NCBI GenBank assembly: GCA_963920665.1
Contig: OY987266.1
Span: 14,017,001 to 14,081,000, forward strand
DNA from: Straminergon stramineum
Lineage: Eukaryota > Streptophyta > Bryopsida > Hypnales > Calliergonaceae
Length of the DNA stretch: 64,000 bases
Direction: 5' to 3'
In this document: in pieces, positions 32,249 to 54,139 of the stretch
Numbering within the stretch: the stretch's first letter is position 1
Layout of the letters: every line of letters begins with the position of its first letter
Notes under the pieces: generated by a model
Database searches by the model: none
What the model saw: only the letters and a program-made list of their open reading frames with translations
Told to the model about the DNA's origin: nothing
Made by a program: the position numbers and the translations under genes

Positions 32249-32268
32249 CATGGTTGTTCCGGCGGACA
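32249..32268 (+). repeat. Left terminal inverted repeat of the giant hAT element
   Basis: CATGGTTGTTCCGGCGGACA. It starts CA-x-GG, as hAT ends do. Subterminal ACAACTCGAC follows at 32,274-32,283 and CCCTGCCCG at 32,368-32,376; both also occur near the right end. Confidence 0.8.
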
Positions 32269-32432
32269 GTTCCACAACTCGACGAACACGACGTCCAACA
32301 CGTCAAGTAGACCCTCTTGTCCGTCTAATAGAGTCAAACTTACCTTTGACTTTTAAAAAAATTTTTACCCTGCCCGTGAGGCCACCTGGATGCCATGTGG
32401 CAAACACGTGTCTTCCACGTAGCATTCTAAAG

Positions 32433-32520
32433 GGGCGCATGCGGGTGTGGGCGACCTCGGGTTTGGGCGACCACGGGTAGGGCGACTTCGGGTTCAGGCT
32501 GGTGGGCGACCGTGGGTGTC
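32433..32520 (-). repeat. Minisatellite array, left end, facing outward
   Basis: Units of GGGCGACNNCGGGT (ACCCGNNGTCGCCC on the minus strand). It points toward the left terminus and has no gene in front of it. Confidence 0.8.
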
Positions 32521-32573
32521 GAGTACGTGGCAAGCTGCGTAGCAAAGACACGAAGTGAGAATCCAAAGAGAAG

Positions 32574-32895
32574 TAACGCCCCACAATTACCCGTGGTCGC
32601 CCCCAAAGACCCGCAATCGCCTCCCAAGGGACCCACACGCGCCCCAAAGACCTGCAGTCGCCCCCCAAAGGACCTACACACGCCCCCGTAACCGCAGTCG
32701 CCCCCCAAAAGACCCGCACGCGCCCTTGTACCCGAGGTCGCCCCTCCCAGGACCCGCACGCGCCCCTGGACCCGCAGTCGCCTCCTCGAACCCGAATGCG
32801 CCCTACCAGACCCGTAGTCGCTCCCCGAGATCCATGTGCGCCCCCTGGAGACCGCGGGTTCAACCGGTGGTCGCCCACCCGCACGCGCCCCATGA
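32574..32895 (+). repeat. Minisatellite array upstream of gene A
   Basis: About fifteen units of roughly 20 bp. ACCCGCAGTCGCCC alternates with ACCCGCACGCGCCC, separated by short variable A/G-rich spacers. It ends about 30 bp before a TATA-like box. Long frames read across it on both strands are artefacts of the repeat. Confidence 0.9.
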
Positions 32896-32922
32896 CCAAC
32901 TCTCACCCGTGCTCGCCCCACC

Positions 32923-32970
32923 TATTTATCCACTCGCCCAAGACCTTTTGGGCACCTTTCATTGAGGCTT
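32923..32970 (+). promoter_or_regulatory. Putative core promoter of gene A
   Basis: TATTTAT at 32,923-32,929, then TTTCATTGAGGC at 32,957. The TTTCAYY start-like motif recurs at a similar place in the other element genes. Confidence 0.45.
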
Positions 32971-33114
32971 CTTGTCTTGTATCCTTTAGTGGCTACATGC
33001 GTGAACCTTGACTATTTACTATTTATTACATTCATCCACCCTTCTTACCTTAGTAGTTGTGGACCACCTAAACTCCAAAAAGAGTTTTTTGAGCCTTGGA
33101 CACGACAATCATTG

Positions 33115-35605
33115 ATGGCCACTGGAGTTAACAATGCCAGGGCATTGCCTATCTCCGTTGCTGCACAGACCGCCGGGGCATTACGGAAGGCTGCCAAAGA
33201 CAAACATCGCAAGCGTAGGGGCACTATTCATCGGAAGCAATTGCACGTGCTCAATAGTGAAGCCCACCTTGCTTTTAAAGGTTGGAATGAAGAACTAGAG
33301 CCTTGGACAATACAAACCTGTGAAGACTACATCGAGTGGTGCCACATCGGCAAGTTCTTTCCTTTATGGCGTCATCATTATAATCGGCACACCAATAAGG
33401 CCAACTTGAAGTACTGTGAGAATCTAGCATTCCTTCAAAGATGCATTGAATTGTGGCAAGTCCTCTACAAAACCGCCTTTGTAGATAGGAACGAGGTCCC
33501 CCTCTCCCTTGCTAGAGGAGCATATGCTGAGGTCGCTCTAAACAAAGAGGTTGATTGGAGCACAATCAAGGGAAGTACGTATGTCACTCGTCCATAGAAT
33601 GGTTTCATCCCAAAAGGAGTTTCAGCTTTTCCTGAGGGGGGATTCGGTCCTATTCGAAGTGCATACAAAACGCAAACCCCTACCACTGAAGTTGACACTG
33701 AGGAGTCTGAAGAAGATGATGACTCTAATGGTACGCGCGTCCATAGGGTCATACGAATCGTGGAGCAATCTGTTTGCCCCAATGAGGTTCAAAATGAAGT
33801 TGTAGAAGGACCCGCGACATCGACGGGACAACGACCAAGGCAACCATCTAGAGTACGGCGTTCAACAACACGAGTGGGACCCGCATCGATTCCAACTATA
33901 GTTCCTAACCCATCACTGCCAACACAGCGCACAAATGACGTCTTCGACTTTGGGCCCGATGAGGACACGGCTATGGAAGAAACTAACCGTGTTCCCATTT
34001 CTCCATCAACAATGGGCTCAAGCCATGACATTATGACTTTGGCAAAAGCTCTGGACCTCCTCAAGACCAAAGATGTTGAAATTTCTTCACTACAGAATGA
34101 AATGAGGAAATTGCGATGTGAGTGAACAAAAAAGTACACTCATCTCTCAACAAACTACAGAACTGCAACGCCTCCGTGAGAAAGACCCTGACACTTTCAC
34201 TTTGTCGGATATGGATGACGCCTTTGTTGAGCAGAACCTCCAAAATGTGGACAAGGTTGTGGGGGACCTTACCAACCATATCCTTCAGCGTTCTCCTCTT
34301 GCCAAGCGCACTAGACACTCCCCCATCATTCCAAATACACTTCCTACTATTGTCACAAGATATACTACCAATGACACAATTGACCTCAATGGGACCCAAG
34401 ACTCTCTTTCGTTTCCTGTGGTTCCATCAATTATTCAATTGGAGAAAGACCATGGACTTCAAGAAGAAAATAAGATGCTTCGAAGAAAGTTGGCTGAGTT
34501 GACTACCACATACTACCATTGGAAGGTCGCCTGCATTCTCTCCGTGGATAGATCCCAACAAGTTGCGAAGGAGCTAGAGAAAGTTTCTAGAAACTTTGTT
34601 GCAAATGCTCCTAAACGTGAGAATGGATTGATGTCATGGGCATTGTTGGAGGACATGTTTCCCAATAACATGTGCATGGTGGAATTGCCACAAAAGGAGG
34701 TCATAGATTGGAGCAAAAATGGTTGGGACCACGAAAACCAAATGTCTAGCCATATAGAAGAGAAGAAACGAATGCTATTGTGGCCCAAGCCTGCACCTTT
34801 TGTTTTGGACCATACCAAATGCCCCATATGTCTTGAACAATTTGGCCCCGAAGGGGGTTGGGCACTAGGATCTTGTGCACATGTATACCACCCCCAATGT
34901 CTCATCACACAATGCTTGATTAGACGACGTTGTGTGATTTGTTCAGCACCATTCCATGATCGCCTGTATACCATGTTCAACTTGACGACCTACATGCCTC
35001 CTTCTTTGGAACACACACGTGATACTACGGCTGACACAACCTTGTGGGGCCAAGATTTGGTTTGGAGTTGGCGAGAAGGACAACATGATCAAGAAAAAGG
35101 ACCTGCTAGCTCGCAATTGAATTGGGAAACAGACCCAGACGAAATTGCCAGAGTTGCACCAAGGCTCATGGGAAAGGGGCCACAAAACGAAGGGAGGAGG
35201 GCATTCTTCTTCCAATGCCTTGGTGGATATTGGGACAAGACCTCCTCAACCTTCAAGTGGGGTCCTCATCCACAACGACACTGTTGGAATTTAGAAGGAG
35301 AAAGGGTGGCTAATCAAGATGATAGTGCCTCCCTAGAAGACTTGACTAGTATGGCTTACCTAGACTCTACGTACGGACCATATTACCAAAGTCAAGCACT
35401 TGACTACTTGTTGGAAGCACATTCTCCGCAAACAACAAGGACCCTCCAAGCTCTACATGACTCCAACGTGTTGCAATCAATTTTGAAGGTAGACAGACCA
35501 GCTTCACGAACCCGTGCAAAGCGAAAGCTAGGGGTTGGGGAAGCATCGACCTACGAAGAAGGTGAAGGAAGTGGCTCTCAAAACAACCCAAATGTAATTG
35601 ACTAG
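33115..35605 (+). pseudogene. Gene A: WCHI-domain, coiled-coil and RING-finger protein (one stop, one frameshift)
   Basis: The frame starts at ATG 33,115. A basic N-terminus is followed by the unrecognised domain with WCHIGKFFPLWRH at residues 75-87 and AYAE...VDW at 137-148; both motifs are shared with genes B and C. TAG at 33,595-33,597 interrupts the frame, which then stays open to 34,125. Close to 34,110-34,125 the coiled coil continues one frame over (one extra base) and runs to 35,605. This last part has a RING-type finger, CPIC-x13-SCAH-x2-HPQC-x10-CVIC, at about 34,820-34,945. Reconstructed length is about 830 residues. RING fingers usually mark E3 ubiquitin ligases; whether this one is active is unknown. 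The neighbouring array and TATA-like box support a dedicated promoter. Paralogue C reads through the position of the TAG, so an intron there is unlikely. Confidence 0.75.
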
Positions 35606-36858
35606 ACATTCATAGGAATCATGCAATTTAGCCTTACCTCCCATCATAATAGATGACAAGTAAGGGTTAGGTTTTAGTTACACTATGTTTCTAGTTGTTT
35701 TGGCAAGTACGATGGAGTGGTTTAGGGTTTGCTTCTTTCATTCCACTTCTACGACTTCCTAGCATACCTATGTACGGCAATTCCATATGGCATTGATTTT
35801 GATTTAATACTACCTTTTTTTCCTCTCTACCAAAGCACCAATTTCTGAAATCATATCGAGAATGATCTTTTCGAGTTCTTCCAAAAATAGTTTGTATGAA
35901 TCAAATCAACAAAGCTCTTAAAGTTTAACTTTTCAAATTAATTTCACTTGCATTGAGAAGAAAACTAGGTCACTACTCACTAGAGTGGAGCATCATTGTC
36001 CAATTGGATATTTCCTTTCATATTCTTTAAAATCATGAGGTTCTAATTATAGGAAGCTTTTCCTCTAAGCTTTCAAGATACTTGGCCAAAGAAGGAATAA
36101 AAGGGGTTCAAATACAACATGCCCCTTTTCGTGGATGTTGACTTGTTGACTTCACATTACCATACCTTCAAATGGTTCACCCTGTCCTTGGAGGTCAAAA
36201 TTTTGATTCATGAAAAACATGAGTAGGCCAACATACATATAAAACCTACCTAATTCCTCAATATCCATTGTAATTTTCTTCAAATTACGCTAAAGCTAGA
36301 ATTCTAAAAAATCCTATATACAAGGAGGAACAATGCAGCAAATCACCCAAGACAAATAAGCTCAATAAATTTCCTCGATTAATATGGTATTTGGGGCATA
36401 ATTGGTTTTTCGTTCTCCACTATTCATATGAAAATCATTAATACAAGTTGTACTGTAGATTTCATAACGACATTCTCACAAAATAGTGAAAATACTATGT
36501 CAACTTTTACAGTCAAGAATCAAGAACTTCCCATCAATCCCATGTAACTATTCGATTGTAATTATGTGCAAGAATTCCATTCCATTCATCATACCATCAC
36601 CTTCTCCCAAAACATGAGAGAGACATATTCATCTATATAGAAAAGTTGTAAGATCCCAAAATGGTGTGGCATTTTCTCCCTTCCATGCACACCACTAGTG
36701 TGCCCACACCAATTTAACTATTCTAGTACACACATTGCTTCAAGACACCATATACATTGTTTTATCTCAAAACATTGCATTTCTTTATAACACCAGGATA
36801 GGCAAAATACAAAATAATCATGGTGAAAGTATTTATCCTCATTGTATTCCTAGGTATT
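35606..36858. other. Convergent spacer between genes A and B
   Basis: AT-rich, no coding sequence. It must hold both 3' ends. No repeats matching the arrays were seen. Confidence 0.5.
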
Positions 36859-38331
36859 TTATTTTGTGTTGAGGTAGTCCTTCAAAATGGGCTCTGGACC
36901 CATTTGTAGTAATTCTGCATCAGACTTCCCTATGCTAGCTCTATTCCACTTATACCAATCCGAAAAAAACCGACTTTCTGCCCTCAAAGCTTCCAACTCC
37001 GATACCATCAATGGTAATCTTTGCTCATGGAACTTCACCAACTTCTCAAGCGTTGTTACTTCTCCAGCAACACTACCATATGTTGAGGAAGAAGCCAAAA
37101 GCTCTACTTTTGGAACTTGCTGGACGGTAGCCTCGTAATATTCTTTTTTCTTCTCCATTATTTGAAGTTCTAGGCTTCGCCTTTCATTCTCTGCCTGCTG
37201 ACGTTTGCGGACAAGGGTTTCGAGTTTTGATTCCCATATCAAATAATGTTCCATTTTATGCACCTTCCCACTCTTCATCTCCTTCAAATAAAAATCGTGA
37301 TTTCTTTTGAAGGAATGGAAGCCCTTGTCATTCTCTTCGATGACGTTCGTTATGGCCTTCAACCGTTGCTTCAACACCTCTACGAAAGTGGGATTCATTT
37401 CTTGCTCCTTCAAAGTTTTCAATTGCTCGTTCTTTGCACGCAATGCTAATTTTGCACTTTCTATTTTGGCAAGCAACATTGCCTCTTCATTTTTTGAATC
37501 GCTTCCTCCACCACTCCCGTCACCCTCTCGCAAAACGGGGTCCACTCTCCTAGCCACCCCATCATCCATGCCTTCTTCATCCGTATCTTGTACTATGATG
37601 GGCTCTTGAGCTGATTGTCCACTTTGGTCGACTCCCACATCCACAGCCGGCCTAGATTCTTGTATGGCAACCTCCTCCTCATCGCTGTGGAAAGAATGTC
37701 CATCGTATTCATGGGTGTATAGATCAGAGCTAGAAGTCTCTGACCAAACCACGCTTTCATCGCGAACAAATGACTTCCCATGCTTTACCTTGGATAACAT
37801 CTTCTTTACATCCACAGGTTCATCTGGTGGTAAAATTTATGCAGTCTCTGGAATGATCGCAATAGGGACCTCCTTCAATGTTGACCAATCCACCTCCTTC
37901 TTCAACACATATTCTGCATACACCATTTTCACCAGAAAGAAACAGAAATTGTCGTTTCAGTAAGTTGAGTCCTCCAAATACAAGTGCTTCCACACCTCAC
38001 AACATCTAAGTATGAAGCCCTCGTCCTTCGAGTATGCAAGATTTACTTTGTTTTGCTTCAGATGTTCTTTGTGCCGACACAAGGGAAATAATTTGCTGAT
38101 GTGGCACCAATCCACGTATTTGCAAACGGTTTTGTAACTCCAAGGCTCAGGTTCATTTCTCCAACCTTTAAATGCCTTAATCTTTGGATGGATCAAAATG
38201 GCCACACGCTTCTTGTGAATTTTACCAGACCGTTTCCAACCCTTGTCGCGGATGAGCTTCATTACTTGTCGTGTAAGGTGTTTGATTGTGGCAGGCGTCA
38301 ATGGTGGGGGTTCATTCTCCATAGTGCTCAA
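36859..38331 (-). pseudogene. Gene B: WCHI-domain coiled-coil protein (two in-frame stops)
   Basis: The frame starts MSTMENEPPP at 38,331. WCHISKLFPLCRH is at residues 75-87. TGA at 37,957-37,959 falls where gene C has a Trp (IPWSEV), so TGG to TGA is likely. The same frame then reads MVYAEYVL...VDWSTLKE, clearly homologous to A and C. TAA follows at 37,837-37,839. From 37,815 to 36,859 the frame is open again: an acidic linker, then long heptad-rich coiled coil (residues about 290-420) and an aromatic patch FFSDWYKWN near the C-terminus. Total about 490 codons, close to gene C at 514. All parts are in one frame with no splice signals needed. Function unknown. Confidence 0.75.
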
Positions 38332-38596: not shown

Positions 38597-38636
38597 GACA
38601 AGGCGCAAAAGGGAAAGATGGGAGACTGTGGGTTTA

Positions 38637-38945
38637 GGGTCTGATTTTGTACCCGCAGTCGCCTCAGGGCGAGCACGGGTCCAAGGGGGGGGGGGGGGGC
38701 ACGTGCGGGTCAGGAAGGCGACCGCGGGTCCAGGACCACCGCCACCGACCGCGGGTGATGGCGACTACGGGTCTAGGGGCGACTGCGGGTACGGTGGGGC
38801 GACAATGGGTCTGGTGCGACTGCGGGTGAAGGGAAACCAAACTGGGGGCGCATGCGGGTCTGGGCGACCGCGGGTTTGGTGCAACCACGACTGGGGGCGC
38901 GTGCAGGTCTGGGGCGACCGCGGGTCCCAAACCCCTGACCGCAAA
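38637..38945 (-). repeat. Minisatellite array upstream of gene B
   Basis: Units of GGGCGACYGCGGGT on the plus strand, so ACCCGC(A/G)GTCGCCC lies on the coding strand of gene B. It includes a 15-G run at 38,685-38,699 that could form a quadruplex. Confidence 0.9.
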
Positions 38946-39207: not shown

Positions 39208-40797
39208 CTATGAGAGGACAGAGTCCCGAAAGACGAATTCGGGTGGTTTCATGAACCATGGTTTACCCATGAGGAGGTCCACCACTTGCGCACATGTTGG
39301 TCTTTTGTTAACATCAACATCAACTAGTTCACGTAACTTCATGGCAAAGTACCTTGATGACTCATGATTTCTAAATAAGTCCTTGTCGTATTCAACCATG
39401 TGTTCTATGTTCATACGTTGGATCAACTTTCCAATGGAATAAGAGTCGGACTTCACCGAATATTTGTAGGTCGCTTTCATCACATCTAAACTCGTATCTG
39501 AACCCTCTGGCCCAAACAAATAGAACAACTCTGGAGCTGCCCACCAACGGCCCATCCTCTCAGCATCAAGTTTTTCCTGTTTTTCATATCCAAAATGCGA
39601 GGGAGCTCCTTCTTGAATACGACTTGCAATTCCCCAATCACAAATCCCAATGTTGATCTCTTCGTCCGAGAAGGGGGGATAATGCAACAATATGTTCACA
39701 GGTGACAAGTCATTGTGCAGTACCCTAGCATTGTGCACGAGACTTGTCACATAAACCAGGGCCCACGCCAACTTCGCCTTGTGTCTTCGAAAGAGGCTAA
39801 TTTCTTTTTGTTGCTGGCCTATAAGTTGCTTGACCAACTTGATTTCATGCCATTCCGCATGCGACACCACCTTCTCGTTCAAATGAAGCAACTCTTTGAA
39901 ATTACCACCATTCCACCACAAAGTGTATGCTTCCATTGTTTGGTCATGGACAGCTAGGAATTTAATAATGGCCAGATGATTCAACGGGCATACCAAAGCC
40001 TCCACTGACCGTTCCACCCTTGCATCACGTTTGTTCCTTTGCTTTGACAATTTCCCTGCGAAATGTACATGCGCTGGGATCGTCGACATCCCTTCAATGC
40101 GTACCTAGCGCACCTTTGCATATCCTCCTTGACAGTCAAATCCAGTAAGTGGGACCACCTTGGCCTCTGAGTAGACCCACATGATACATGAACCACTATC
40201 TCTTGTAAATGCAGCCTTCAATGCATCCGTCTGCCACCCCATACCCCTAGCTTCAGACCTTGACAATCTTTTTGCTGCAATTTGCCACCAATCCATCTTC
40301 TCACGGAACTCTTGGGCCCTATCCGTTTCTCCAAATCCAGGCACTATAGGTCGCAACTCAAGCATCAACTTCTTGGTGTTGAATATACCAGTTTGTAGGC
40401 AATTGCCAATCCACATTTGCCATTGGTTGAAATACACTTCATCCACATCTACATAGTCCGAAGATTCCTTGCATTTCCTTGTAATAAATTCCTCCAACTC
40501 ATCCTTCAAGGATTGGATGCTTGCCTCTTTATTTCTCAAGTATTTCCTCTCCAAATATTGTACACTTTTTTCCTCATACCATTGGAGACAAGCCTCATGC
40601 GCATAGGTCGTATATCGTGTTGGAGGATAGGTAGGGTCCTTATCGTGTGCTGTCTTGGACTTCTTTGTCTTGGATGGTCCGGCACCCCCAATTACCTCCT
40701 TGGTAGTTATATCTACAACAAATGCTGCAGGATTATCAAGGTCCTTCTCCCAAGCCGATATCCGACCCGTACTACTTCCTTCCTTTGAAGTAGACAT
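39208..40797 (-). pseudogene. Gene D: protein kinase with novel N-terminal domain (one in-frame stop)
   Basis: ATG at 40,797; an open frame upstream to 40,926 reads only promoter sequence. Residues 1-220 are a Trp-rich region I do not recognise. The kinase domain follows: glycine loop GGYAKVR (224-230), then TAG (codon 231, 40,105-40,107), then in the same frame VRIEG, a probable lysine in FAGK (249), catalytic loop HNDLSPVN (361-368), DWG in place of DFG (387-389) and AAPEL (420-424). All main catalytic residues remain, so the loss is a single codon inside the ATP-binding loop. Eukaryotic protein kinases phosphorylate Ser/Thr or Tyr; the HND and DWG variants are unusual but keep the catalytic Asp. 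The gene lies head to tail with B and has its own upstream array. Confidence 0.8.
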
Positions 40798-40901: not shown

Positions 40902-40975
40902 CCACTTCAAGGTGGATGAAAGCCAATGCGCAAGACCAAGAATGGCGACCGCGGGTCTGGGCGACCGCTTAAGTA
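40902..40975 (-). promoter_or_regulatory. Putative core promoter of gene D
   Basis: On the coding strand, TACTTAA (40,969-40,975) lies within the last array units, then TTTCATCCACCTTGAAGTGG at 40,902-40,921, 54 bp downstream. The same spacing occurs in gene C. Confidence 0.5.
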
Positions 40976-41195
40976 CCCGAGGTCGCCTTGGGGCGCATGC
41001 GGGTCTGGCGCATGTGGAACGGGCGACCGCGGGTATGGGGCAACCGTAGGTATGGAGGCGACCGCGGGAGGGGCGACTGCAGGTTGGGGTGACCGCGGGA
41101 GGGGGCGACTGCGGGTTCCAGAGGTCCTCGAGGATGGAGGCAACCATTCGCATGGGGGCGACCACTGGTCCTGGGCGACCACGGGTCCAAAAAGG
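40944..41195 (-). repeat. Minisatellite array upstream of gene D
   Basis: GGGCGACCGCGGGT-type units of about 20 bp on the plus strand, oriented with gene D. Confidence 0.9.
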
Positions 41196-42424: not shown

Positions 42425-42439
42425 ACCACAGGGAATTAG

Positions 42440-42678: not shown

Positions 42679-43495
42679 CTCCACCCGCGGTCGCCCCCCA
42701 ATCCACGAAATTAGGCTCGAAACCACTAGGACCTGAAGTTGCCCCCACCTGCAGTCGCCCCCCCCATCCACCAAATTAGGCTCAAAACCACCAAAACAAA
42801 AGCCCGTGCCCCCACCCGTGGTCGCCCAAGACCTAAAGTCGCCCCCCCCTCCACCAAATTAGTTTGAAAACCACCAAAACAGAAGACCGCACCCCCACCC
42901 GTGGTCGCCCAGGACCTGAAGTCGCCCCCAAGCCGCGGTCGCCCCTCCATCCACCAAATTGGGCTCGAAACCACCAGGACCCCCACCCGCGGTCGCCTAG
43001 GACCTGAACTCGCCCCCCACCCGCAGTCGCACCCCATTCCACCAAACTGCCCTCCACAACCACCAGGACCTGAAGCTGCCCCAACCCGCGGTCGCCCAGG
43101 ACCTAAAGTCACCCCCCCACCTGAGGTCGCCCCCAATCCACCAAATTGGCCTCGAAACCACCAGAACCTGAAGTCGCCCCCACCCGTGGTCGCCCAGGAC
43201 CTGAACTCGCCCCCCACCCGCAGTCGCCCCCAATCCACCAAATTGGCCTCAAAACCACCAGGACCTCAAGTCGCCTCTACCCGCAGTCGCCTAAGACCTG
43301 AACTCGCCCCCCACCCGCAGTCGCACCCTATTCCATCAAATTGGGCTCAACAACAACAAGCTAGAAATCCAACCCCCACCCGCAGTCGCCCCATTCCACC
43401 GAATTGGGCTCAACAACAGCAAGCGAGAAGACCCAGCGCCCACCCGCGGTTGCCCAGGACCTGAAGTCGCCCCCCACCAGCAATCGCCTCTATCT
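42679..43495 (+). repeat. Largest minisatellite array, no gene directly downstream
   Basis: ACCCGCAGTCGCCC units are interleaved with a longer unit (ATCCACCAAATTGGGCTC... and AGGACCTGAAGTCGCCC), giving a higher-order repeat. Long frames on both strands are repeat artefacts. The next plus-strand gene starts 2.1 kb further on and has its own array. Confidence 0.9.
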
Positions 43496-44030
43496 TAAAG
43501 TCACGCCAGTCCATAAACCACCGTAGCAAAAGATGTGAGCCATCTCCAACACTAATGAAGTCAGACTTAATTGTGTGCTTCATTGACTACAACTGACCTG
43601 TCCTTCAATATTGGTAGCTAGTTAATACTACAAAATCAATCTATAAATACAAAATTATAGTAAGACTAATTAGAAAAATTGAAGAGGGTTTTCCAAACCC
43701 TAAACCCTAACCCTATACCCTAAACCCTATAGAAAAACCATAGACCTTCTCCATGTATGCCACCCCAAAAGTAATGTACTTCTATTTTTTAGGGTGGATA
43801 AAATGATAAACATATGTGATTTGCTTTTCATTATATGTCATAAAAAAGTTTGAACTCCTAAACCTTGCACTTGTAAGATATAAACCATTGAAGGTGTCAT
43901 TTCCGAACTTTTTAATCTTCAATAAATTCAATATTCATTCACCCCTTCAAATGTGTTTTAAATCCCCTTGATGTATCAAGAGGAGGACCCTATTCAAATT
44001 CCTATGTTTAAAGATGGAAAATGAAATGAC
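43496..44030. other. Spacer with interstitial telomere-like repeat
   Basis: AAACCCTAAACCCTAACCC at about 43,694-43,730, a few degenerate CCCTAAA units as in plant telomeres or telo-box promoters. The rest is AT-rich without genes. Confidence 0.5.
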
Positions 44031-44930
44031 GAGGAGAAGGGCTTCCCCAAGTCTCCATTTTTAAAAAACACTTCCTATGTAGATCAAAAGATTTTTTCTT
44101 CATGCATCTCATGGTGTTAGTATTTTTTTTGTACATCGTTTCTCCCCAAAGGAAATGTCTCCTCCAAATGTACTCCCTCTAAAAATTAAAATAGGAAATG
44201 GTCATGTTGAATTTTACATGAGCATGAAGAAAACAAAATTGTGAAGGAGAAGAGCTTCCCCAAGCCTCCATTTTTAAAAACCATTTCTTATGGAGATCAA
44301 AAGATTTTTTCTTCATGAATCTCATGGTGTTAGTATTTTTTTTGTACATCGTTTCCCCCCAAAGGGAATGTCTCCTCCAAATGTACTCCCTCTAAAAATT
44401 AAAATAGGAAATGGTCATGTTGAATTTTACATGAGCACGAAGAAAACAAAATTGTGAAGGAGAAGAGCTTCCCTCCATTTTTAAAAACCATTTCTTATGG
44501 AGATCAAAAGATTTTTTCTTCATGCATCTCATGGTGTTAGTATTTTTTTTGTACATCATTTATTCATTTCCCCCAAAGAGAAGGTCTCCTCCAAATGTAC
44601 TCCCTCTAAAAATTAAAATAGGAAATGGTCATGTTGAATTTTACATGAGCATGTGGAAAAAGAAAATGTCAAGGAGAAGAGCTTTCCCAAGTCTCCATTT
44701 TTTAAAACCACTTTTGATGTAGATAAAAAGATTTCTCTTCATGCATCCCACAGTTTTAGTATTTTATTTGTATATCGTTTCCCCCCACAAGGAAAGGTCT
44801 CCTTTTAATGTACTCCCTCCAAAAATTAAAGTAGGAAATGGTTACGTTGAATTTTACATGACCACATGGATGGATGAAGAAGAAATAAAATGTTAGGAAG
44901 AAGGGCTTTTCCAAATCTCCACTTCGTCAA
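44031..44930 (+). repeat. Tandem repeat, four copies of 207-219 bp
   Basis: The anchor CATGCATCTCATGGTGTTAG recurs at 44,101, 44,314, 44,521 and, diverged, 44,740. Each copy also has TACTCCCTCTAAAAATTAAA and CATGTTGAATTTTACATGA. Copies 2 and 3 are most alike. No conserved frame. Confidence 0.85.
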
Positions 44931-45103: not shown

Positions 45104-45445
45104 CCTTGACCCACGGTCGCCCCTGACCCGAGGTCGCCCCATACGCAGCCGCTCCCATCGTCATGAATTGGGGAAGACCTTTTGGAATCTGAGACCCGCG
45201 GTCGTCCAGGAAATGACCTGTGGTCATCCTATATGTAGCCGCCCCCTGTACCCGCGGTCGCCCCATTACCTGAGGTCGCCTAGGAAAAGACCTGTGGTCG
45301 CCATATGCAACCGCCCCCCTATACCCGCGGTCACCCTACACCCGAGGTCTCCTTCCAGAAACTGTAATTTTTCCTGAATGGCAGTTTCTGAACAGTGGGA
45401 CCCAGACCCGCAGTCGCCCAAGACCCGCACGCGCCCTAGGCGACT
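45104..45445 (+). repeat. Minisatellite array upstream of gene C
   Basis: ACCCGCGGTCGCCC-type units with spacers, ending just before a TATTTAA box. Confidence 0.9.
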
Positions 45446-45450
45446 TCGGG

Positions 45451-45523
45451 TATTTAAGGGGATACTGGATTCCCAAGTCATCACTTCCTTCGTCGCACCA
45501 CGCCTTTCATCCACCTTGAAGCG
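45451..45523 (+). promoter_or_regulatory. Putative core promoter of gene C
   Basis: TATTTAA at 45,451-45,457 directly after the array, then TTTCATCCACCTTGAAGCG at 45,505-45,523, matching the motif before gene D at the same 54-bp spacing. Confidence 0.55.
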
Positions 45524-45655: not shown

Positions 45656-47200
45656 ATGACAAAGAAGAAAGGAGATCGCCATAGCAGGCAACGACGCGCC
45701 CTTCTTGACCCAGCGGCTAAGGCATATCGGGGATGGCATCATGTAAATTCCGATTGGACCTTGACGACTTGCAAGTTATTTGTGGATTGGTGCCATATCG
45801 ACAAGCTCTTCCCTTACCATCGACACATTCACTATGTGAAGCAAAACCAAGCAAATCTTCATTACTACAAGGATGATGCATTTGTCCAGAGATGTATTGA
45901 AGTGTACCGAGCATTGTACGGAAAGCGAAAAATTCCATGGAGCGAAGTCTCAATGGGCATATGCCAAATGGTATATGCAGAGTTACAATTGGGGAAAACG
46001 GTAGATTGGATGACCTTCAAGACATCCAAGAATGTCACGCTTCCAGATACAAAAGACATTCCAAGAGCGGGTCCTTCAAATAATCCTCGGGATGGGCTAG
46101 GGCCCAAAAAGAACATTATAGAAGGAGTGGCAGATGAGGATTATGTTTGGTCAACGTCAACTAGAGAATCGGACTCCGATGAAGAGCCATTGCCTGAACC
46201 TAGGGATAGGATGGAAGATACATCAATGGAAGAAAACTTAGCATTGGTGGTATCCGAAGAAGGCAACATGCAACGGACCACACCAACGGATGGAGAACCT
46301 TTTATGTCTGTGGAACCGATAGGGGTCCGTCGTCCTGAAGATGACGAAGTGTTCCATTACGTGCAAGCTCGCTTGCAAGAAATTAATGAAGATAGGTTGG
46401 ATGGGGAGAGTGAAGCGGAAGAAGAGATTCCTTTGACCTTGATGAATTTTCCTTCCATGGAAGGATTGCATGAAATGGAACAAGAACATCAAGGTGTACT
46501 TGGAGAAGACAATAAACAGCGGACGAAAGAATCCTATAAAGTGGAGTTGGAGATGCTTTTAAAGGATCTTGAAGAAAAAGAAAGGGAGTGTGAGATCATC
46601 GAGAAGCAAAGCGCACAAGAGATTCAGGTTGAGGATGTGGGCACCCTCAAAGAACTAATTCAAGCTGGACAAACTCATTTGGCAGCCCAACAAAGAAAAA
46701 TGGAACAACTGGAACAATTTTACCTCAAGTTCAATAAGGGAGAAGATGGAGGTTCCAGTTCAAATGTCAATCCTGTTATAGATGAACGACTTCAAACAAT
46801 AATGGGAAAATGTAGGATGGAAGAAAACAACCTTGCCATTGAAAAAGGAGGTGTGGAAAAGGCAAGATCGACATTGAACCACTTGAAGGAGATGAAGGAT
46901 GCAGATCCTATTGACCGGTCGTCGCAATCGGATTCATTGTCTGTGGATGTTGAAGATTCATCATCCACTACGGAAATAGAGAAGTTGAAGATGAAGTTAG
47001 CGTTTGTGAAAAGATTGGAACAGAAGTTGGAGGAAAAGATGTCGTGGCCGAAGGCACACATCAGGTTCATGTCATTGTTCAAGAAGTGGTGGATCCAAAA
47101 TAAGATGTGGAACCATGACCTGACTCTTTTGAAGAGGGAAGAGAGAGTGGCAAGAGCCCAAATAGAACTAGAAAAGAAGAAAAGGGAAGAACAAGGGTAA
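45656..47200 (+). CDS. Gene C: intact WCHI-domain coiled-coil protein (514 aa)
   Basis: The only undamaged member of the family. A basic N-terminus (residues 1-25) could localise it to the nucleus. WCHIDKLFPYHRH is at 45-57 and VYAE...VDW at 107-118. An acidic linker (about 160-280) and long charged coiled-coil stretches (about 280-510) follow, with a Trp-rich patch FKKWWIQNKMWN near the C-terminus. ATG at 45,656 follows the array, TATA-like box and start motif. I do not recognise the family and see no catalytic motif. The shared N-terminal domain plus coiled coil would fit a DNA-binding or scaffolding role in transposition or host interaction, but that is inference. Confidence 0.8.
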   Translation: MTKKKGDRHSRQRRALLDPAAKAYRGWHHVNSDWTLTTCKLFVDWCHIDKLFPYHRHIHYVKQNQANLHYYKDDAFVQRCIEVYRALYGKRKIPWSEVSMGICQMVYAELQLGKTVDWMTFKTSKNVTLPDTKDIPRAGPSNNPRDGLGPKKNIIEGVADEDYVWSTSTRESDSDEEPLPEPRDRMEDTSMEENLALVVSEEGNMQRTTPTDGEPFMSVEPIGVRRPEDDEVFHYVQARLQEINEDRLDGESEAEEEIPLTLMNFPSMEGLHEMEQEHQGVLGEDNKQRTKESYKVELEMLLKDLEEKERECEIIEKQSAQEIQVEDVGTLKELIQAGQTHLAAQQRKMEQLEQFYLKFNKGEDGGSSSNVNPVIDERLQTIMGKCRMEENNLAIEKGGVEKARSTLNHLKEMKDADPIDRSSQSDSLSVDVEDSSSTTEIEKLKMKLAFVKRLEQKLEEKMSWPKAHIRFMSLFKKWWIQNKMWNHDLTLLKREERVARAQIELEKKKREEQG

Positions 47201-48082
47201 ATGGATGGAGTATAAATTAGGTGGCTCTTGTTTCTTTTATGACTATGTACTTCTTCCAAGATATATGAAGAAAAAGGCTTTGTCCTTATTTTTGTTGAAA
47301 TACAAGAATGTTTATTTTTATTTTTTGTGTATGAAAATGTGATTGCATTTGGATCCAAACATTTGAATTTTTGACAAATTTTGATGATTTCAAGTTATGT
47401 GAATGTTAATTTCTTGTTAAATTTGTGTAGTGTTTTAAAAAAGAAAAGAATTCTAGTAACTTTGAGTCTACACAAAGAACCCTCAATAAATTTAAGCTGC
47501 ATCATTCATGAGAGTTTCAATATAAGTTTATATGGTTGCATTTTTCAGTATTTTAACATATGGTTTGAACATATTGTAAATGACAACATTCCCATGCCCT
47601 TCACCTCGTGAATGTATGGACTCTTCTTGAGATTTATAATTTGGGAAAAAACATCATAAAAAGGTACTCAAAAGAATACTTTTGGAATTGATAGAGAAAT
47701 GGAAGTTATACATTTTGAGTTGTGGATTCCATGTATATGGTTTGATCAACCAATGTTGTCCCCCATTTTTCTTTTTAATTTGAAAGAGAAAGTTCTTAAT
47801 TTTTTCCACATTTGAGTACAAGCTAATTCTATTTATTTTTTATTAAGTCTATTGGAATGGATTTGAAATGAGTTTCCCTTCATGTGGTTGTTTAAAAAAA
47901 AAATTGCATTCTTTAAGTCTATGACCATACTCCCGAAAATCTTTTTTTGAAGTATCTATAAATCCCACGTCAAACCCTTGGATAGCATTTAGGGTTTAAT
48001 AAAATCTCTATCTAAACTAGGATGACTTTCATCTAGAAACTTAGCGATGGAACGCTAACGGGATAACAAAAATGGCCTTGGG
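47201..48082. other. Spacer between gene C and the transposase gene
   Basis: AT-rich. It includes the 3' end of gene C; no other feature was seen. Confidence 0.5.
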
Positions 48083-48365
48083 TCCTAAAGCGTAAGCGCG
48101 GTCACCCTTCAAGTACCCAAAGCCGCCTCTTGAGACTCGCGGTGGCCCCCTTCTATCCGCAGTCGCACCCCCTAGACCTACAGTCGCACCTCCTAGACCC
48201 GCAGTCGCCGCCCCTAGACCCATAGTCGCCCCCCCGAGACCCGCAGTCGCCTCTTTCTACCCGCAGTCGCCCCCCCTTCCACCCACACTCGCCCCCCTTA
48301 CCCGCAGTCGCCTCTTTTTCGACCCGAATTCGCCCCCCTTGGACCCGCAGTCACCCACGGGGCGA
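48083..48365 (+). repeat. Minisatellite array upstream of the transposase gene
   Basis: ACCCGCAGTCGCCCCC units about 20-22 bp long, same orientation as the transposase gene. Confidence 0.9.
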
Positions 48366-48446: not shown

Positions 48447-48490
48447 TATAAAGCTGAAGGCCCGGACTGTGGTTTTCACCTTGCTTCAAG
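48447..48490 (+). promoter_or_regulatory. Putative core promoter of the transposase gene
   Basis: TATAAA at 48,447-48,452 and TTTTCACCTTGCTTCAAG at 48,473-48,490. This is the best TATA box among the five genes; the start motif is diverged. Confidence 0.5.
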
Positions 48491-48677
48491 GATGAACTCT
48501 TGCCTTGAATCTTCGAAAGAGGCTTCTTGCAGATGTTTGGTTCTTTGGAGGGCAACGACTTGGTTTGTGTGGTTTAAAAGACCGTTCAAAGCAAGTGGCT
48601 TTGCCATTCTTTTTTCTAAATCAAGGCTTTGATTCATATGATAATATTGTTTGAAGAACTCATAGGCGAGGAACAAT

Positions 48678-51245
48678 ATGGCTAGTCGGGGTGAGGGGAG
48701 GAGGACTACCATTAACGATACAAGGAGAGCCACGAAGGAGTGGGACCCTTGGTTGATTGTAGACATTGACCATCAATTTGCGGGAAACACACGAACATGT
48801 GTTTTCTGTGGGTGGACCTCCGTATTTGTACGAAAGCGGGCATCTTGTCACTTTGGATTTGGCGGCAGGACTGCATCAGAGCGATGTAAGAAAATCCCAT
48901 GGGCAGTATTGCAAAAGTTTAGGACTTGTGGTGGGGTTGTTCCAAAGGAAATGAGCTTTGAACAAATGCATGAGGAGGTTCCAGAATTTGATGTTGTAGA
49001 TGAGACTGTGGTTGAGCCTATGTTGGAGGGGGATAGGGAGAGGTCAGAGGAGCCTAGTGCTACGAATGAACCAATGCTCCCTATTACAGATTCAGGAGAT
49101 TCCACTCCTCAAACAATTTTGAGAAGGAGGAATAACCCTTCCATTTCTAGGCAAACTAGCATGGATGAGGCATTACAAAGTAGCACGAGAGCAAAGTTAG
49201 ATACCATGTGGGCTTCCTTTTTATATGAGGCTAGCATCGCGTTCAATGTTGCGCGCCATCTTGCCTTTGTGAAAGCAGTGAAAGAGACAGCGGCATCAGG
49301 ACTATGATACCAACCGCCCTCATACAATGCTTTGCGTACAAGAATGATAGAGCCAAAGAAAGAAAGTGTTTCTAAAATGGTCACTGAGCGAACAAAGCAC
49401 TCTATCGAAGTTTATGGAGCGACTATCTGTTCGGATGGTTGGTCTAATACTAATAGCCGTCCATTACTAAATTTAATGCTCGTGTGTCCTGTAGGGGATG
49501 TGTTTCTTGGATCGGTGGACACCACGGGGGAGAAGAAGGACATTGCGTACACAACCAATATGATGGCGCAATACATAGAAGAGGTTGGCCCCAAAAACAT
49601 TGTCCAACTATGTACGGACAATGCTGCTGTCATGACGGGGACTTTGAAGGCGTTACAAGAGAAATATCCTCACATGTATACCCAAGGATGCGCAGCACAC
49701 ATTTTGGACTTGCTTTTGGAAGATTGGGCAAAGGATGTCAAGGTGACGAGAATAGTACGACGTTGTACGCAGATAGTAAAATACATCAAGAGGTACCATT
49801 CCACATTGGCTCTCTTCCGAAAGTACTCCCCGGACAAGGCATTGCGAATGCCTTCTAAAACACGCTTTGCAGTGAACTTCCTCATAATATCACGTGTGGT
49901 GGAGTGCAAGTCAGCATTGATGCGAGTGATAATGGATGAGACATATGTGCAATTTGAGGCTAGTTTGGAACGTCGCCAAAATGGAGATGTATTGAGTGCA
50001 CGAGCCCATATAGCGCGGAATGACATTCATGCGAAATCTTTTTGGGTGGAGTGTGAGAATTTTTTGCACATGGTAGAGCCCATCATTATTGTTCTCCGAG
50101 TGTTTGATGGGAAAGCCCCGGCAATGCCTAAGGCTTGGTTGGTTATGAAGACTCTTCAAAAGCATGTATAGAGCTTGAGAAACGAACCGTTTTTTCTGAA
50201 TGATGAAACTGCAACGAAGTTTGAGACGCAATTCGAGGCTCGTTAGAAATTGATGCTCACAGACCTACACTATGCAGGGGCACTCTTAAATCCTTTCTTG
50301 ATTGAAGTAGGAACCCTTCGTAACGACGATGTGGCCAAAAGAGCCTTAAATCGGGTGCTTCGAAAAATGAGCGAGTCATTGGGATTATCATACATGGAGG
50401 CATTGCAGGAGCTCACGCAGTTCAAAGAGAAGACAGGTCCTTTTGACCCCTTAGAAGAGGCTCCTGATATTACACAATGTACACTAATGCCTCATCAATG
50501 GTGGAATCTTGTGGGTGCTAATGTTCTCCCAAAAATTGCAATGAGAGTTCTATCTTTGACGTGCTCAGCATCATCATGTGAAAGGAATTGGAGCATGTAT
50601 TCGTTTGTGCACAATAAAGTGCGAAATCGCCTAACCACATCCAAGGCGGAAACATTGGTGTATATCTACACCAACAGTAAACTTGAACGTGAGAAACATG
50701 GACACAATCCTGCAGTGTTCTACGAAAAGTACCTTATGGATGGAAATACCTCGGAAGAGAATGAGGAGCCATTAGGTACAGGATCATCAGGGGATGGCGA
50801 CCCAGTTAGTAGGGCTCGAGCTAATGAGAACATTAGGCTGGCAGAAGAGCGTCTACGTGGAAATATTTGGACAGGACTGATTCGTAGAGAAAAGAGTCCT
50901 CCACGGAGACACAACTATGGAAATACATTTACAGCTAAGAATAATACGTACTACTCTGAGGAGGAGGAGATTCAATGTGCACCGCGAAGGCCCTCGCAAC
51001 CCTACATCTCTGCTAGGGATAGGAATGTACCTCCTCCAATAAATTCATCACCAACTCGGGCAAGTAGTCCCGACAACCCCAATGAAGGCATACATAGTAC
51101 AATGCCCATAAGAGCTGAGGAAGCAAGATGGGTGATTGCAAGAAAGACTTGTCCTATTTGTTGCGTTTTCAGTTTTTGCTGCGTTAGTCCTATTAGTACT
51201 ACGAGTCCTGCGAATACTATGAAGGGTACGGGAGATGAAACGTAG
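48678..51245 (+). pseudogene. hAT-superfamily transposase (three in-frame stops)
   Basis: One frame of 855 codons. The N-terminus has a BED-like zinc finger (CVFC-x13-CHF...C, about residues 40-75). The middle is the DUF659/hAT core: CSDGWS (251-256, first catalytic Asp), LCTDNA (Asp about 314) and GCAAH. The C-terminus has the hAT dimerisation motif SSCERNW (Glu about 635). Stops: TGA 49,305-49,307 at the usual Gly of the GYxPPSY motif, TAG 50,169-50,171, and TAG 50,244-50,246 at a position that is normally Trp. All three fit single-base changes. The protein class agrees with the 8-bp duplication and CA-x-GG ends of the giant element, so it is probably that element's own transposase. As written it cannot make a full-length protein. 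Confidence 0.9.
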
Positions 51246-52000
51246 ACCGTTGATTGGAATCGAGATGAAACACTAGGAAGATGCGTGGCCGCATGGTAGT
51301 GGATGACAGTAGGAGATGTCAGGGAAGGCTGATGTTTTGGGACAATCCCTGTCATCCACGTTGGCAAAATTGCAGGCGTAGTGGGCCCCGCCCAGTACTA
51401 AGGAGTCCTACACTATACCTTGGACTACTATTTTCTGACAGTGTCTTTGATTTACCCCAGAAAATGAAGCTGGAACTTTCCCATTTTTGAAAAATAGTTA
51501 ATGATTTTGGAAAAATAAATTTAAAAGTGGCCATTATTGCCAACTGAGAGAACTAGTGAATGGAGCAAGAAGAAATTGGAAAACATTTTGTATTACTTAG
51601 AAAATGTTGTGTAAACGTCGCACACATTGGAGCAATGCCAAAGGCAATTGAAACATGATTTTGCAAATCCCTCTCCACAAAAGTTGTAATTCCACTACAG
51701 CAGCTCACTGTCCAATTTTGACGATATAATCCTTCAAAAAAGGTACTCGATAGTACTAAAAACTATCAAAATCGCAAATGTGACATGTAAATGAAATTCA
51801 ATTTCACACCCTAAAATAATTTTGAAAAATTCAGATTAATTTGTGTTCATTCATCAGTGCTAGAGGAACCTACATTTTGAATTTCATGTTCATTCAATCA
51901 TTTCTTCAATAGTTATGGCACAAAACAACCACCGCATTGAAAGTGTGACGCAAAATAGGACAGGTGTTTTTTGCAATCACCCAGATCTCCAAATGTTGTA
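51246..52000. other. Spacer after the transposase frame
   Basis: No domain recognised. It may include an intron leading to the acidic frame downstream. Confidence 0.4.
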
Positions 52001-52034
52001 GATCAGGGTTCTACAAGGGTAATGAACCTACGAA

Positions 52035-52813
52035 GTGCCGCTTGAGTTGCTGAGGTAAATGAAAGGCAAGAGGAGGCAACACCGCCAACACACGTCGAAG
52101 ATGTTGTGCTTACAAGCGGTCTACTTTCTCCATTACAAAGCCCCTTAAGAACAGAAAATGTGGAATATGATTCAAACTTGCCCTTGCAAGCTATTATGAA
52201 CCGGAATCGTACGGTGCCCTTAAGTGGAGGAGGAAACGCAAACAATGCTAGGGCAACTAGGTCTATACCAACCCGTGCGACTAGGCCACCCTTGCATAAT
52301 AGTCCTCTTAGGACAGTTGATAATGAAGGCCATGCTTTAGCTCCACAACCCACTCAACCCTCCTCTATTTTTGGCCCTGGAGAATCATCCTTGCTCGTGC
52401 GTGAAGGCACAAGAGGACAGAAAAAGCGATTGAGGAAGACGCAGGAGAGGCTACAAAGAAATCCCAAACGACAAAACCATGTTGTCCAAAGATTCATCAT
52501 GGGTGAAGCCAATTCGAATCGAAACATCGGGCAATCCAGTAGAGGCGGACGACATCCTGCATCCAACCTTGATGGAACAAGAGATGCATTGGGGTTGACT
52601 AAACGATTGGTGCAAACTAGCGGTGATGGCATCGTGGATACTGAAGTGCGGAACGTGAACTCAGAGGTAGAACATGAAGTGCAAAATGAACGAGTACGAA
52701 GGGAGGATGACGAGAATGATAACCGTGATGATAATGATAGGGGGGAGGAGTCGGATGATGATTCTGACCCTGACGCTGATGAGGTGCCTAGTGATTACAC
52801 ATTTTCACCGTAA
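52035..52813 (+). CDS. Acidic low-complexity ORF, possible 3' exon of the transposase gene
   Basis: The frame is open from a TGA at about 52,035 to TAA at 52,811-52,813. It is rich in Arg, Pro, Asn and Ser, then has an acidic tail (DDENDNRDDND...). There is no good ATG near its start and no minisatellite array in front, unlike the other genes of the element. It therefore looks more like a 3' exon or a decayed gene than an independent one. The C-terminal part of the transposase (Pro/Ser/Arg-rich) has a similar composition. Confidence 0.4.
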
Positions 52814-53689
52814 CTTTATAAATATAGATTTAGAGGTAGTGAAGTGGTAATGTAATGCTTTTGCATAATTTTGGTGTGTTGAAGTTTTCTAGCTTAAGTT
52901 CATAGGCAAATAGCCTATAGATGAGTTTTGTGTAGTATCTACTTTAGTATGAAAGCATGATAGTGTTAGAATTACAAAGTTTTGTTCAATGTCTTTAGTG
53001 TGGACTTCTACAGGTATAGACGTGGAGATCTTAACAAAGTTCATGGAAGTACAATTGAAGTAGAAGTTCATTTATAAGATTGGGTCACTACTCTATTAGT
53101 GTGTACAACTTATAAATACAGTAATACTAATTATCCTTACTTGTTTCTTGTTTTTGTATCTATTTTTGGTGTAATTATTATATCCAATTGCGATATTGGC
53201 TTCTACACTTCAATAGGAGTAGAAAATTTGAATTAGAAATTCCCAACCATATGTAATAAAAACATGTAGAACTCGGAGGCTCCTATGAATGAGTGAATGA
53301 CCACATAATGTGAAGTACTTAATTTAAGGCTTAGGAGAATGCAATGGCACATGGAAACTGAAGGATCCAAAATCGTGAGCAAGATTGAAATGGTTGTTAT
53401 ATCCATGTTTGCAATTGCAACGGCACACGAGGTTGCTCTTAACCTTTAACGGATGGACTAGTGAGTATGAAAATCATCTCCAATGGAACTCTGTGATGTG
53501 ATGTACTTGCCTTTCCCCTCACAAAAATACTCATTTCCGGTATGAGGACTCAGTAAGATCTCTCTTTTGGGAATTAGGACCCAATTTTCAAAGATGGACA
53601 ATTGCATTTATGTCGTATATTAGAAGTTCTTATCATCCATGGAACAAAAGAAATTCCTTGCGTATGGAATAAAGCCAAGATCGTCCTTT
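52814..53689. other. Spacer near the right end, with a TTAA-family end
   Basis: TTAACCTTTAACGGATGG at 53,439 and following sequence (CAAAAATACTCAT, GATGGACAATTGCA) match the elements at 63,699 and 16,890-17,123, so an old TTAA-flanked MITE seems to have inserted into the giant element. Confidence 0.5.
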
Positions 53690-53940
53690 TCCTTACACCC
53701 GCGGTTGCCTTTACACCCTTAGTCGCCCTGAGTTGGACCCGCAGTCACCCTGGATTTTGGACCCGCAGTTGCCCTCATTTTGGGACCCGCGATCGCCTTG
53801 GATTTTGGACCCGTAGTCGCCCTGGATTTTGGGACCCGCAGTCGCCCTGGATTTTGGACCCGTAGTCACCCTCATTCTGGTACCCGCGATCGCCCCACCT
53901 TACCCGCACGCGCCCCACCCGCAGTCGCCTATGGTAACGT
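53690..53940 (+). repeat. Minisatellite array, right end, facing outward
   Basis: ACCCGCAGTCGCCCTGGATTTTGG-type units pointing to the right terminus. There is no gene between it and the end of the element. Confidence 0.85.
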
Positions 53941-54119
53941 GGTCAAAGCTTTCCACGTCACTGTTGACAACCTGCCACGTAAGATAAAAATTTTGGCTGC
54001 CCTGCCCGAAAACCCTAAACCCTAATTTCGCGCTCATCAAATTTGTCCCGTATATGCGACACTCGTCTTATACGACATGCGACATCAGACGAACAACTCG
54101 ACACCCAAACCCGAAAACA

Positions 54120-54139
54120 CGTTCGACAAAACAACCCTG
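54120..54139 (-). repeat. Right terminal inverted repeat of the giant hAT element
   Basis: On the minus strand CAGGGTTGTTTTGTCGAACG. Inside it lie ACAACTCGAC (54,093-54,102) and CCCTGCCCG (54,000-54,008), at distances from the end similar to those at the left. Confidence 0.8.

What the first reader, a model, noticed from the sequence alone, without database searches (positions are those of the whole stretch)
32249..54139. A 21.9-kb hAT transposon carrying cargo genes
Seen: inverted ends CATGGTTGTT/CAGGGTTGTT, identical 8-bp flanking repeats GTATGAAG, and a hAT-type transposase frame inside. Known: hAT elements make 8-bp duplications and usually span only a few kb. Inference: one mobile unit carries a kinase, a RING protein and a novel coiled-coil family, possibly a previously undescribed class of giant plant hAT elements.
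Basis: partly seen in the sequence, partly recalled or inferred. Interest (0 to 1): 0.95.

Follow-up and report, generated by a model that had tools for sequence, protein, structure and literature searches.

The report
Giant five-gene plant hAT transposon
A plant genome holds many copies of a jumping gene about 21,000 letters long that moves as one piece and carries four extra conserved genes, among them a protein kinase and a RING-finger protein, beside its transposase.

Summary
The unit at 32249-54139 has 8-bp GTATGAAG repeats outside short inverted ends. In its own 326-Mb genome both ends recur in at least 40 places each. Of 21 copies whose two ends I read, 18 have a perfect 8-bp duplication, two match 7 of 8, one has none. 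The four copies read through without a gap are 20.7-21.9 kb. Five intronless genes: a hAT transposase (DUF659), a kinase, a RING protein, and a novel domain ("WCHI") shared by three proteins. They look like core genes, not captured cargo: a divergent second family keeps four of the five in the same order and orientation, with rough dN/dS 0.14-0.29 for the three measured. A GC-rich motif forms arrays at both ends and upstream of all five genes: 79 matches inside, none outside. Copies have decayed by CG/CHG C-to-T change, as methylated plant transposons do. Best reading: a multi-gene giant hAT lineage whose accessory proteins help it move or escape silencing; that role is inferred. My searches of a partial library found no description.

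The parts
32241..32248 (.). left target-site duplication GTATGAAG
32249..32267 (+). left terminal inverted repeat (10 bp with 1 mismatch to the right end; weaker match to about 19 bp by reading)
32434..32889 (.). motif block 1 (6 minus and 10 plus matches to ACCCGCAGTCGCC, the first five minus): left subterminal array and upstream block of ORF1
33115..35605 (+). ORF1, 830 aa in copies A and E: WCHI domain, coiled coil, RING, conserved C-terminal region; window copy has a stop at codon 161 and a 2-nt deletion
36859..38322 (-). ORF2, 487 aa in copy C: WCHI domain plus coiled coil; stops at codons 122 and 162 in the window copy
38621..38925 (.). motif block 2, upstream of ORF2 (8 minus, 1 plus)
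39208..40797 (-). ORF3, 529 aa protein kinase frame; stop at codon 231 in the window copy
40944..41186 (.). motif block 3, upstream of ORF3 (7 minus, 1 plus)
42683..43488 (.). motif block 4 (18 plus), tandemly repeated, length varies between copies, no gene directly downstream
45109..45451 (.). motif block 5, upstream of ORF4 (7 plus, 1 minus)
45656..47215 (+). ORF4, 519 aa in copy A: WCHI domain plus coiled coil; stop at codon 515 in the window copy
48155..48355 (.). motif block 6, upstream of ORF5 (9 plus)
48678..52813 (+). ORF5, hAT transposase (DUF659, hAT dimerisation region, long C-terminal tail), 1092 codons in other copies; interrupted in the window copy
51129..51983 (.). 855-bp insertion in ORF5, absent from the 6 fetched copies; not part of the element family
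53697..53929 (.). motif block 7, right subterminal array (11 plus)
54121..54139 (-). right terminal inverted repeat
54140..54147 (.). right target-site duplication GTATGAAG

Best explanation
This is one copy of a high-copy family of giant, multi-gene hAT transposons, about 21 kb long and carrying five intronless genes. Shown: the whole unit inserts as a piece with 8-bp duplications. It encodes a DUF659-type hAT transposase, a protein kinase, a RING protein and, in ORF1, ORF2 and ORF4, a shared novel N-terminal domain (WCHI). The kinase, ORF2, ORF4 and the transposase sit in the same order and orientation in a second, divergent family, and the three compared by dN/dS look constrained. A GC-rich 13-bp motif forms arrays at both ends and upstream of every gene. 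Inferred: ORF5 (or a WCHI protein) binds the arrays, so that the ends and the five upstream regions form one regulated set, and ORF5 cuts and pastes the unit. Inferred with less confidence (about 0.45): the WCHI proteins bind the arrays and, with the kinase and RING ligase, counter host silencing or help transposition, in the way VANC proteins act on tandem motif arrays of VANDAL elements. Also inferred: a burst spread the family, and copies then decayed one by one under DNA methylation.
For: Ends and duplications: (18 of 21 perfect, 2 of 21 at 7/8, 1 of 21 none). Six of six fetched copies carry the element from end to end, at about 94-98% identity in the main blocks and 85-92% over the variable tandem-repeat region, three of them with a 200-N assembly gap. 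Pairing of the two end lists: 15 of 40. Five intronless ORFs, none with a stop in its column-majority codons; the four copies without a gap hold all five over full length. Divergent relatives: ORF4 6 proteins at 36-90%, ORF1 8 at 35-97%, kinase 25 at 33-98%, 11 of the 25 being uninterrupted frames of 511-556 aa. In 18 aligned kinases H212-N213-D214, D238 and G240 are invariant and K103, E117 and N219 nearly so (their catalytic roles are recalled). Second family at C11:14.785-14.804 Mb with ORF2, kinase, ORF4 and transposase in order; dN/dS 0.215 (ORF3), 0.286 (ORF4), 0.144 (ORF5). Motif: 79 matches inside, 0 in the 42 kb outside, expectation 0.25; copies A-F 69-97 inside, 0 outside. Decay: 436 of 578 singletons are C>T or G>A, per-site rate CG 41, CHG 34, CHH 6, A/T 1.3 per thousand.
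Against: Within the window family, singleton changes look neutral (ratio 0.76-1.28) and shared changes are few and mixed (ratio 0.63-1.72, highest in ORF1 and ORF3), so constraint is seen only between families. There synonymous change is saturated (dS 1.7-2.2) and the ratios are rough; only one copy of the second family was read, it is itself decayed (1, 2 and 5 stops in the aligned parts of ORF3, ORF4, ORF5), and its ORF1 and ends were not fetched. One of 21 copies has no duplication (copy E); in two further copies the right end was not found where sought (C9:13952550, C3:28145458). The 21 are not a random sample: 14 come from the best-scoring left ends and 7 were chosen because both ends were listed. 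The motif lies upstream of ORF4 in family 2 with only one coding-sense match before the fetched piece ends, and three upstream of ORF5. The window RING match is below Pfam's cut-off. No expression, binding or transposition was tested. The ORF1 structure model was poor (mean pLDDT 46).
Confidence: 0.88

Rival explanations
1. The extra genes are captured host or passenger genes (Pack-type or Starship-like cargo) that ride along without serving the element.
For: A kinase and a RING domain are common host domains; within the family changes look neutral.
Against: All five genes are present over full length in the four copies without a gap (W, A, B, E). Four genes keep order and orientation in a second family (40-61% amino-acid identity for ORF3, ORF4 and ORF5, 58% for the part of ORF2 read), with dN/dS 0.14-0.29 for the three measured. 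Each gene has the element's own motif block upstream. Relatives in the protein database include long uninterrupted frames, but whether those lie in transposons was not seen.
Confidence: 0.05
2. The accessory proteins are part of the transposition machinery itself (assembly of a 21-kb synaptic complex, target choice, repair of the donor site) rather than counter-silencing factors.
For: Motif arrays lie at both termini, the left one starting in the opposite orientation to the right one, as well as upstream of genes; a large unit may need help to be synapsed (inference).
Against: Other hAT elements are known to move with transposase alone (recalled, e.g. Ac, Tol2); arrays upstream of every gene point at regulation.
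Confidence: 0.35
3. A fusion of a hAT transposon with genes of a DNA virus (Teratorn-like), the kinase, RING and WCHI proteins being viral.
For: Kinases, RING proteins and DNA-binding proteins are typical of large DNA viruses (recalled).
Against: No relative of ORF1 in the viral contigs by this scan (single-protein query, 47 pattern matches, none confirmed); no significant match of the WCHI model among predicted viral structures (best E 2.9); no capsid, polymerase or packaging gene among the ORFs scanned (10 of 18 element frames of 150 aa or more; of the other eight, ORF1's middle piece was covered and seven are antisense or repeat frames, not scanned).
Confidence: 0.06
4. A nest or chance adjacency of several shorter elements whose outer ends happen to match.
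For: Internal GC-rich blocks resemble the ends.
Against: 21 copies in different flanks with the same two outer ends, 18 with perfect duplications, and the same internal order in the six fetched.
Confidence: 0.01

Closest known systems
Ac/Ds and other plant hAT elements
   Same: hAT transposase with dimerisation domain, short inverted ends, 8-bp duplications (recalled for Ac), subterminal repeats
   Different: Ac is 4.6 kb (PMC3260210, search listing) with one transposase gene (recalled); this is about 21 kb with five genes and motif arrays upstream of each
VANDAL elements with VANC anti-silencing proteins (Arabidopsis)
   Same: element-encoded accessory proteins that act on tandem repeats in noncoding regions of the element (PMC10398659, abstract seen); possibly similar logic
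   Different: VANDALs are Mutator-like (recalled), not hAT; similarity of VANC to WCHI was not tested; no kinase or RING known there (recalled)
Fungal DNA transposons carrying TET/JBP dioxygenase, incl. hAT7 and IS3EU with alpha-kinase genes
   Same: DNA transposons, some hAT, with an accessory gene beside the transposase; TET+ IS3EU families also carry an alpha-kinase gene (PMC12730594, passages seen)
   Different: fungal; 7-bp duplications in hAT7; alpha-kinase and TET/JBP instead of Pkinase, RING and WCHI; no such five-gene set in the passages seen
Starships, Teratorn, Mavericks (giant eukaryotic elements)
   Same: giant mobile units in eukaryotes (PMC11623301, passages seen; PMC10175614, listing)
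   Different: Starships use tyrosine recombinases and Mavericks carry polymerase and integrase (recalled); Teratorn is a 180-kb composite with a piggyBac-like transposon (listing); none is a hAT

Membership tests
hAT superfamily | 8-bp target-site duplication | tested here: met
   18 of 21 copies perfect, 2 of 21 with one transition, 1 of 21 none
hAT superfamily | transposase with hAT dimerisation domain | tested here: met
   Dimer_Tnp_hAT E 6.6e-7 in the window and 2.7e-7 in copy A; Hermes transposase E 3.4e-4 over the same stretch
hAT superfamily | short terminal inverted repeats of about 10-20 bp | tested here: met
   CATGGTTGTT/CAGGGTTGTT, one mismatch; kept in the copies with occasional base changes
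hAT superfamily | BED-type zinc finger at the transposase N terminus | tested here: inconclusive
   Cys/His pattern seen by reading (C-x2-C near residue 40) but no Pfam match
hAT superfamily | DDE catalytic triad active in cut-and-paste | not tested
   no check of the catalytic residues was made; DUF659 region matched over its length
VANDAL/VANC system | Mutator-like transposase | tested here: not met
   transposase is hAT with DUF659; no Mutator domain matched
VANDAL/VANC system | tandem motif arrays in noncoding DNA bound by an element-encoded protein that removes silencing | tested here: inconclusive
   arrays present in the window copy and in all six fetched copies; binding and anti-silencing not testable here
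Starship | tyrosine recombinase captain gene | tested here: not met
   no such domain in the ORFs scanned
Teratorn / virus fusion | piggyBac transposase and viral replication or capsid genes | tested here: not met
   none in the ORFs scanned; no viral contig relative of ORF1
Maverick/Polinton | type B DNA polymerase and retroviral-type integrase | tested here: not met
   none in the ORFs scanned

The most novel reading that the evidence does not exclude
A previously undescribed, ancient clade of giant multi-gene hAT transposons in plants that carries its own regulatory system. A transposase, a kinase, a RING ligase and three paralogous proteins with a novel DNA-associated fold (WCHI) are kept together because they form an anti-silencing and mobilisation complex acting on one motif that sits at both ends and upstream of all five genes.
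Probability: 0.45. Interest if true: 0.9.

Novelty: new variant of a known kind. Interest (0 to 1): 0.8.

Why it matters
hAT elements are usually seen as small, one-gene transposons. A hAT lineage that keeps several genes together, a kinase among them, across families sharing 40-60% amino-acid identity would show that cut-and-paste transposons in plants can grow into virus-like gene complexity without a virus. It offers a ready system for asking how transposons interfere with host phosphorylation, ubiquitin and DNA methylation, and how a transposase handles a 21-kb unit. It also warns genome annotators that these kinases and RING proteins may be listed as host genes.

Tried and rejected
Internal deletions in copies C, D and F, and the 12.2-kb copy at C3:2525759, first looked like shorter derivatives; each holds a 200-N assembly gap at that place, so no true short derivative was shown. 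Dead ends: purifying selection within the family (neutral singletons, few shared changes); relatives in viral contigs (the alignment query could not be used; the single-protein scan confirmed none); PDB fold matches for ORF1 (low-confidence model, none) and PDB and viral fold matches for the WCHI domain (3 and 8 rows, best E 7.5 and 2.9, none significant; VIA-align saw only 9 chains); PDB profile search with the kinase alignment at E 1e-8, none (the window kinase fragment alone matches IRE1 and MAP kinases weakly, best E 2.5e-5). Naming the host species: not possible with these tools; my private guess of a moss rests on no call. Literature: nine searches, three of which returned no paper at all because few papers meet their terms, in a library that lacks most subscription journals and preprints; no title or abstract start listed described a giant plant hAT with these genes. 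That is weak evidence of absence.
Full report
Observation. The ends start at 32249 (CATGGTTGTT) and stop at 54139 (AACAACCCTG), with GTATGAAG directly outside on both sides. Inside are a DUF659 plus hAT-dimerisation transposase, a protein kinase and a RING-like domain, the last just below Pfam's cut-off in the window but family-wide in its relatives.

Is the 21.9 kb one mobile unit? The window lies in a 326-Mb assembly of 59 contigs. The left 252 bp match at least 40 places (40 of 872 candidates were scored) and the right 252 bp at least 40 (40 of 851 scored). I fetched six copies of about 30 kb each. All six run from element position 1 to about 21891, at about 94-98% identity in the main blocks and 85-92% over the variable tandem-repeat region. 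Apparent deletions in three of them are 200-N assembly gaps. The four copies read through without a gap (window, A, B, E) measure 20.7-21.9 kb.

Duplications. Reading both ends of 21 copies, the window copy included, gave 18 with an identical 8-bp flank. Two of these have a changed terminal base of the element (C3:2525759, C5:11766574). Two more have a single transition in the flank (C4:15896096, C3:27026415) and one has none (copy E, C3:45198612). The scripted test marked 4 of its 7 pairs as equal; I judged the other three, C4:15896096, and the copies, by reading the printed flanks. The sample is not random: 14 of the 21 come from 16 examined among the 17 best-scoring left ends, and 7 were picked because both ends were listed. 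In the remaining two of those 16 (C9:13952550, C3:28145458) I did not find the right end where I looked. Pairing the two 40-place lists by coordinate alone gives 15 same-strand pairs with spans of 12.2-21.9 kb, the shortest of which holds an assembly gap; one opposite-strand pair lies within 60 kb. The unit therefore moves as a whole.

Genes. Comparing copies shows five intronless ORFs: ORF1 (830 aa, +), ORF2 (487 aa, -), ORF3 (529 aa, -), ORF4 (519 aa, +) and ORF5 (1092 codons, +). None has a stop in its column-majority codons. Single copies are damaged; no copy read has all five intact. The window copy has a stop in every ORF, a 2-nt deletion in ORF1, and an 855-bp insertion in ORF5. ORF1, ORF2 and ORF4 share a domain of about 115 aa with invariant positions such as W27, W34, W45-C46-H47, R56-H57 and D117-W118 (numbering of ORF4). 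I call it WCHI; the name is mine. No Pfam family fits it. AlphaFold gives a confident model for ORF4 residues 1-150 (pLDDT 88.4, pTM 0.85) with no significant match in PDB or viral models. The kinase family has H212-N213-D214, D238 and G240 invariant and K103, E117, N219 and W239 nearly so in 18 aligned proteins. A database of 5.8 billion proteins gave 6 relatives of ORF4, 8 of ORF1 and 25 of the kinase at E 0.001 (for ORF4 and ORF1 only the candidates sharing most words were scored).

Core genes, not cargo. A search of the genome with a divergent ORF4 relative scored 91 of 1440 candidates and gave 181 matches; most listed places have a 522-aa open frame, as in the window family, but six on contig C11 are of another type. 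At one of the six I asked where the kinase and transposase should lie if the element were conserved, and fetched those stretches. Both were there: transposase at C11:14787104-14785020 (58% over residues 1-686), ORF4 at 14791751-14790531 (35%), kinase at 14797435-14799006 on the other strand (53% over residues 1-528), and further on ORF2 from 14803817 (58% over residues 1-217). Order and orientation match the window. Between the families dN/dS is 0.215 for the kinase, 0.286 for ORF4 and 0.144 for the transposase, with saturated dS of 1.7-2.2, so the values are rough; the C11 copy is itself decayed, with 1, 2 and 5 stops in the aligned parts. ORF1 and the ends of this family were not reached, and the other five C11 places were not read. 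Within the window family, singleton changes are neutral (0.76-1.28) and shared ones few and mixed (0.63-1.72), as expected of copies that died after a burst.

Shared motif. ACCCGCAGTCGCC with up to two mismatches occurs 79 times in the window, all inside the element, in seven blocks; a first-order Markov model of the element expects 0.25. The left block starts with five minus-strand matches, the right block has 11 plus-strand ones. A block lies upstream of each of the five start codons, mostly reading along the coding strand (10 of 16, 8 of 9, 7 of 8, 7 of 8 and 9 of 9 matches for ORF1 to ORF5). One further block (42683-43488) has no adjacent gene. The six fetched copies have 69-97 matches inside and none outside. 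In the C11 copy the kinase has 16 coding-sense matches upstream (and one opposite), ORF2 seven, the transposase three, and ORF4 one (and one opposite) before the fetched piece ends.

Decay. Of 578 singleton changes in the five ORFs, 436 are C>T or G>A. Per-site rates are 41 (CG), 34 (CHG), 6 (CHH) and 1.3 (A/T transitions) per thousand. High CHG together with CG change is the mark of plant-type methylation (established knowledge), which supports a plant host and silenced copies. Copies lie 1.0-1.65% from the column majority.

Mechanism. Shown: unit transposition, hAT transposase, conserved gene set, motif layout, methylation-type decay. Inferred: ORF5 recognises ends through the arrays; the arrays make the five genes one regulated set; WCHI proteins bind DNA; kinase and RING act on host factors. 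The nearest working analogue is VANC, which binds noncoding regions of VANDAL elements, where its targets form tandem repeats, and induces loss of silent marks (PMC10398659, abstract seen). Fungal hAT7 and IS3EU elements that carry TET/JBP genes, IS3EU also an alpha-kinase gene (PMC12730594, passages seen), show that DNA transposons do adopt such helpers. A role in transposition itself is nearly as likely.

Verdict. A giant, five-gene hAT lineage. I file it as a hAT by transposase, ends and duplication length, and as a new variant by size, gene content and motif layout. I found no report of it in nine searches of an incomplete library.

Noticed in passing
window 51129-51983: 855-bp insertion with imperfect 31-bp inverted ends (TGGGTGATTGCAA...), flanked by GA on both sides by reading, absent from 6 of 6 fetched copies: a separate small element that broke the transposase gene of this copy.
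   Followed up: partly
window 42683-43488: Largest motif block: 18 matches in one orientation here, 15 to 33 in copies A, B and E, tandem units of about 83-97 bp, no gene directly downstream; its role is unexplained.
   Followed up: partly
window 44032-44861: Tandem array of a 213-bp unit, 3.9 copies, between motif block 4 and ORF4.
   Followed up: no
contig C11 of the window's genome (14790498, 4049852, 1439193, 2508470, 9330729, 1062999): The six listed ORF4 places of the divergent second type all lie on one contig of 17.4 Mb (a capped list); why is unexplained.
   Followed up: partly
copies at C11:17065493, C3:33055373, C4:26051809, C3:2525759: 200-N assembly gaps inside four copies, which mimic internal deletions.
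   Followed up: yes
copy E, C3:45198612 (minus): Full-length copy with both ends but different flanks (TTAATGAA, TTGTAACA): perhaps a recombined or rearranged copy.
   Followed up: no
window 43695-43729: Short run of the plant telomere-like unit AAACCCT inside the element.
   Followed up: no
window 6001-13000: A stretch outside the element richer in G+C and CpG than the DNA on its right; possibly another gene or element.
   Followed up: no
proteins P0032, P0033, P0034: Divergent members of the kinase family lie on contigs of 302 to 418 kb from unnamed sources, so related elements may exist in other assembled genomes.
   Followed up: no
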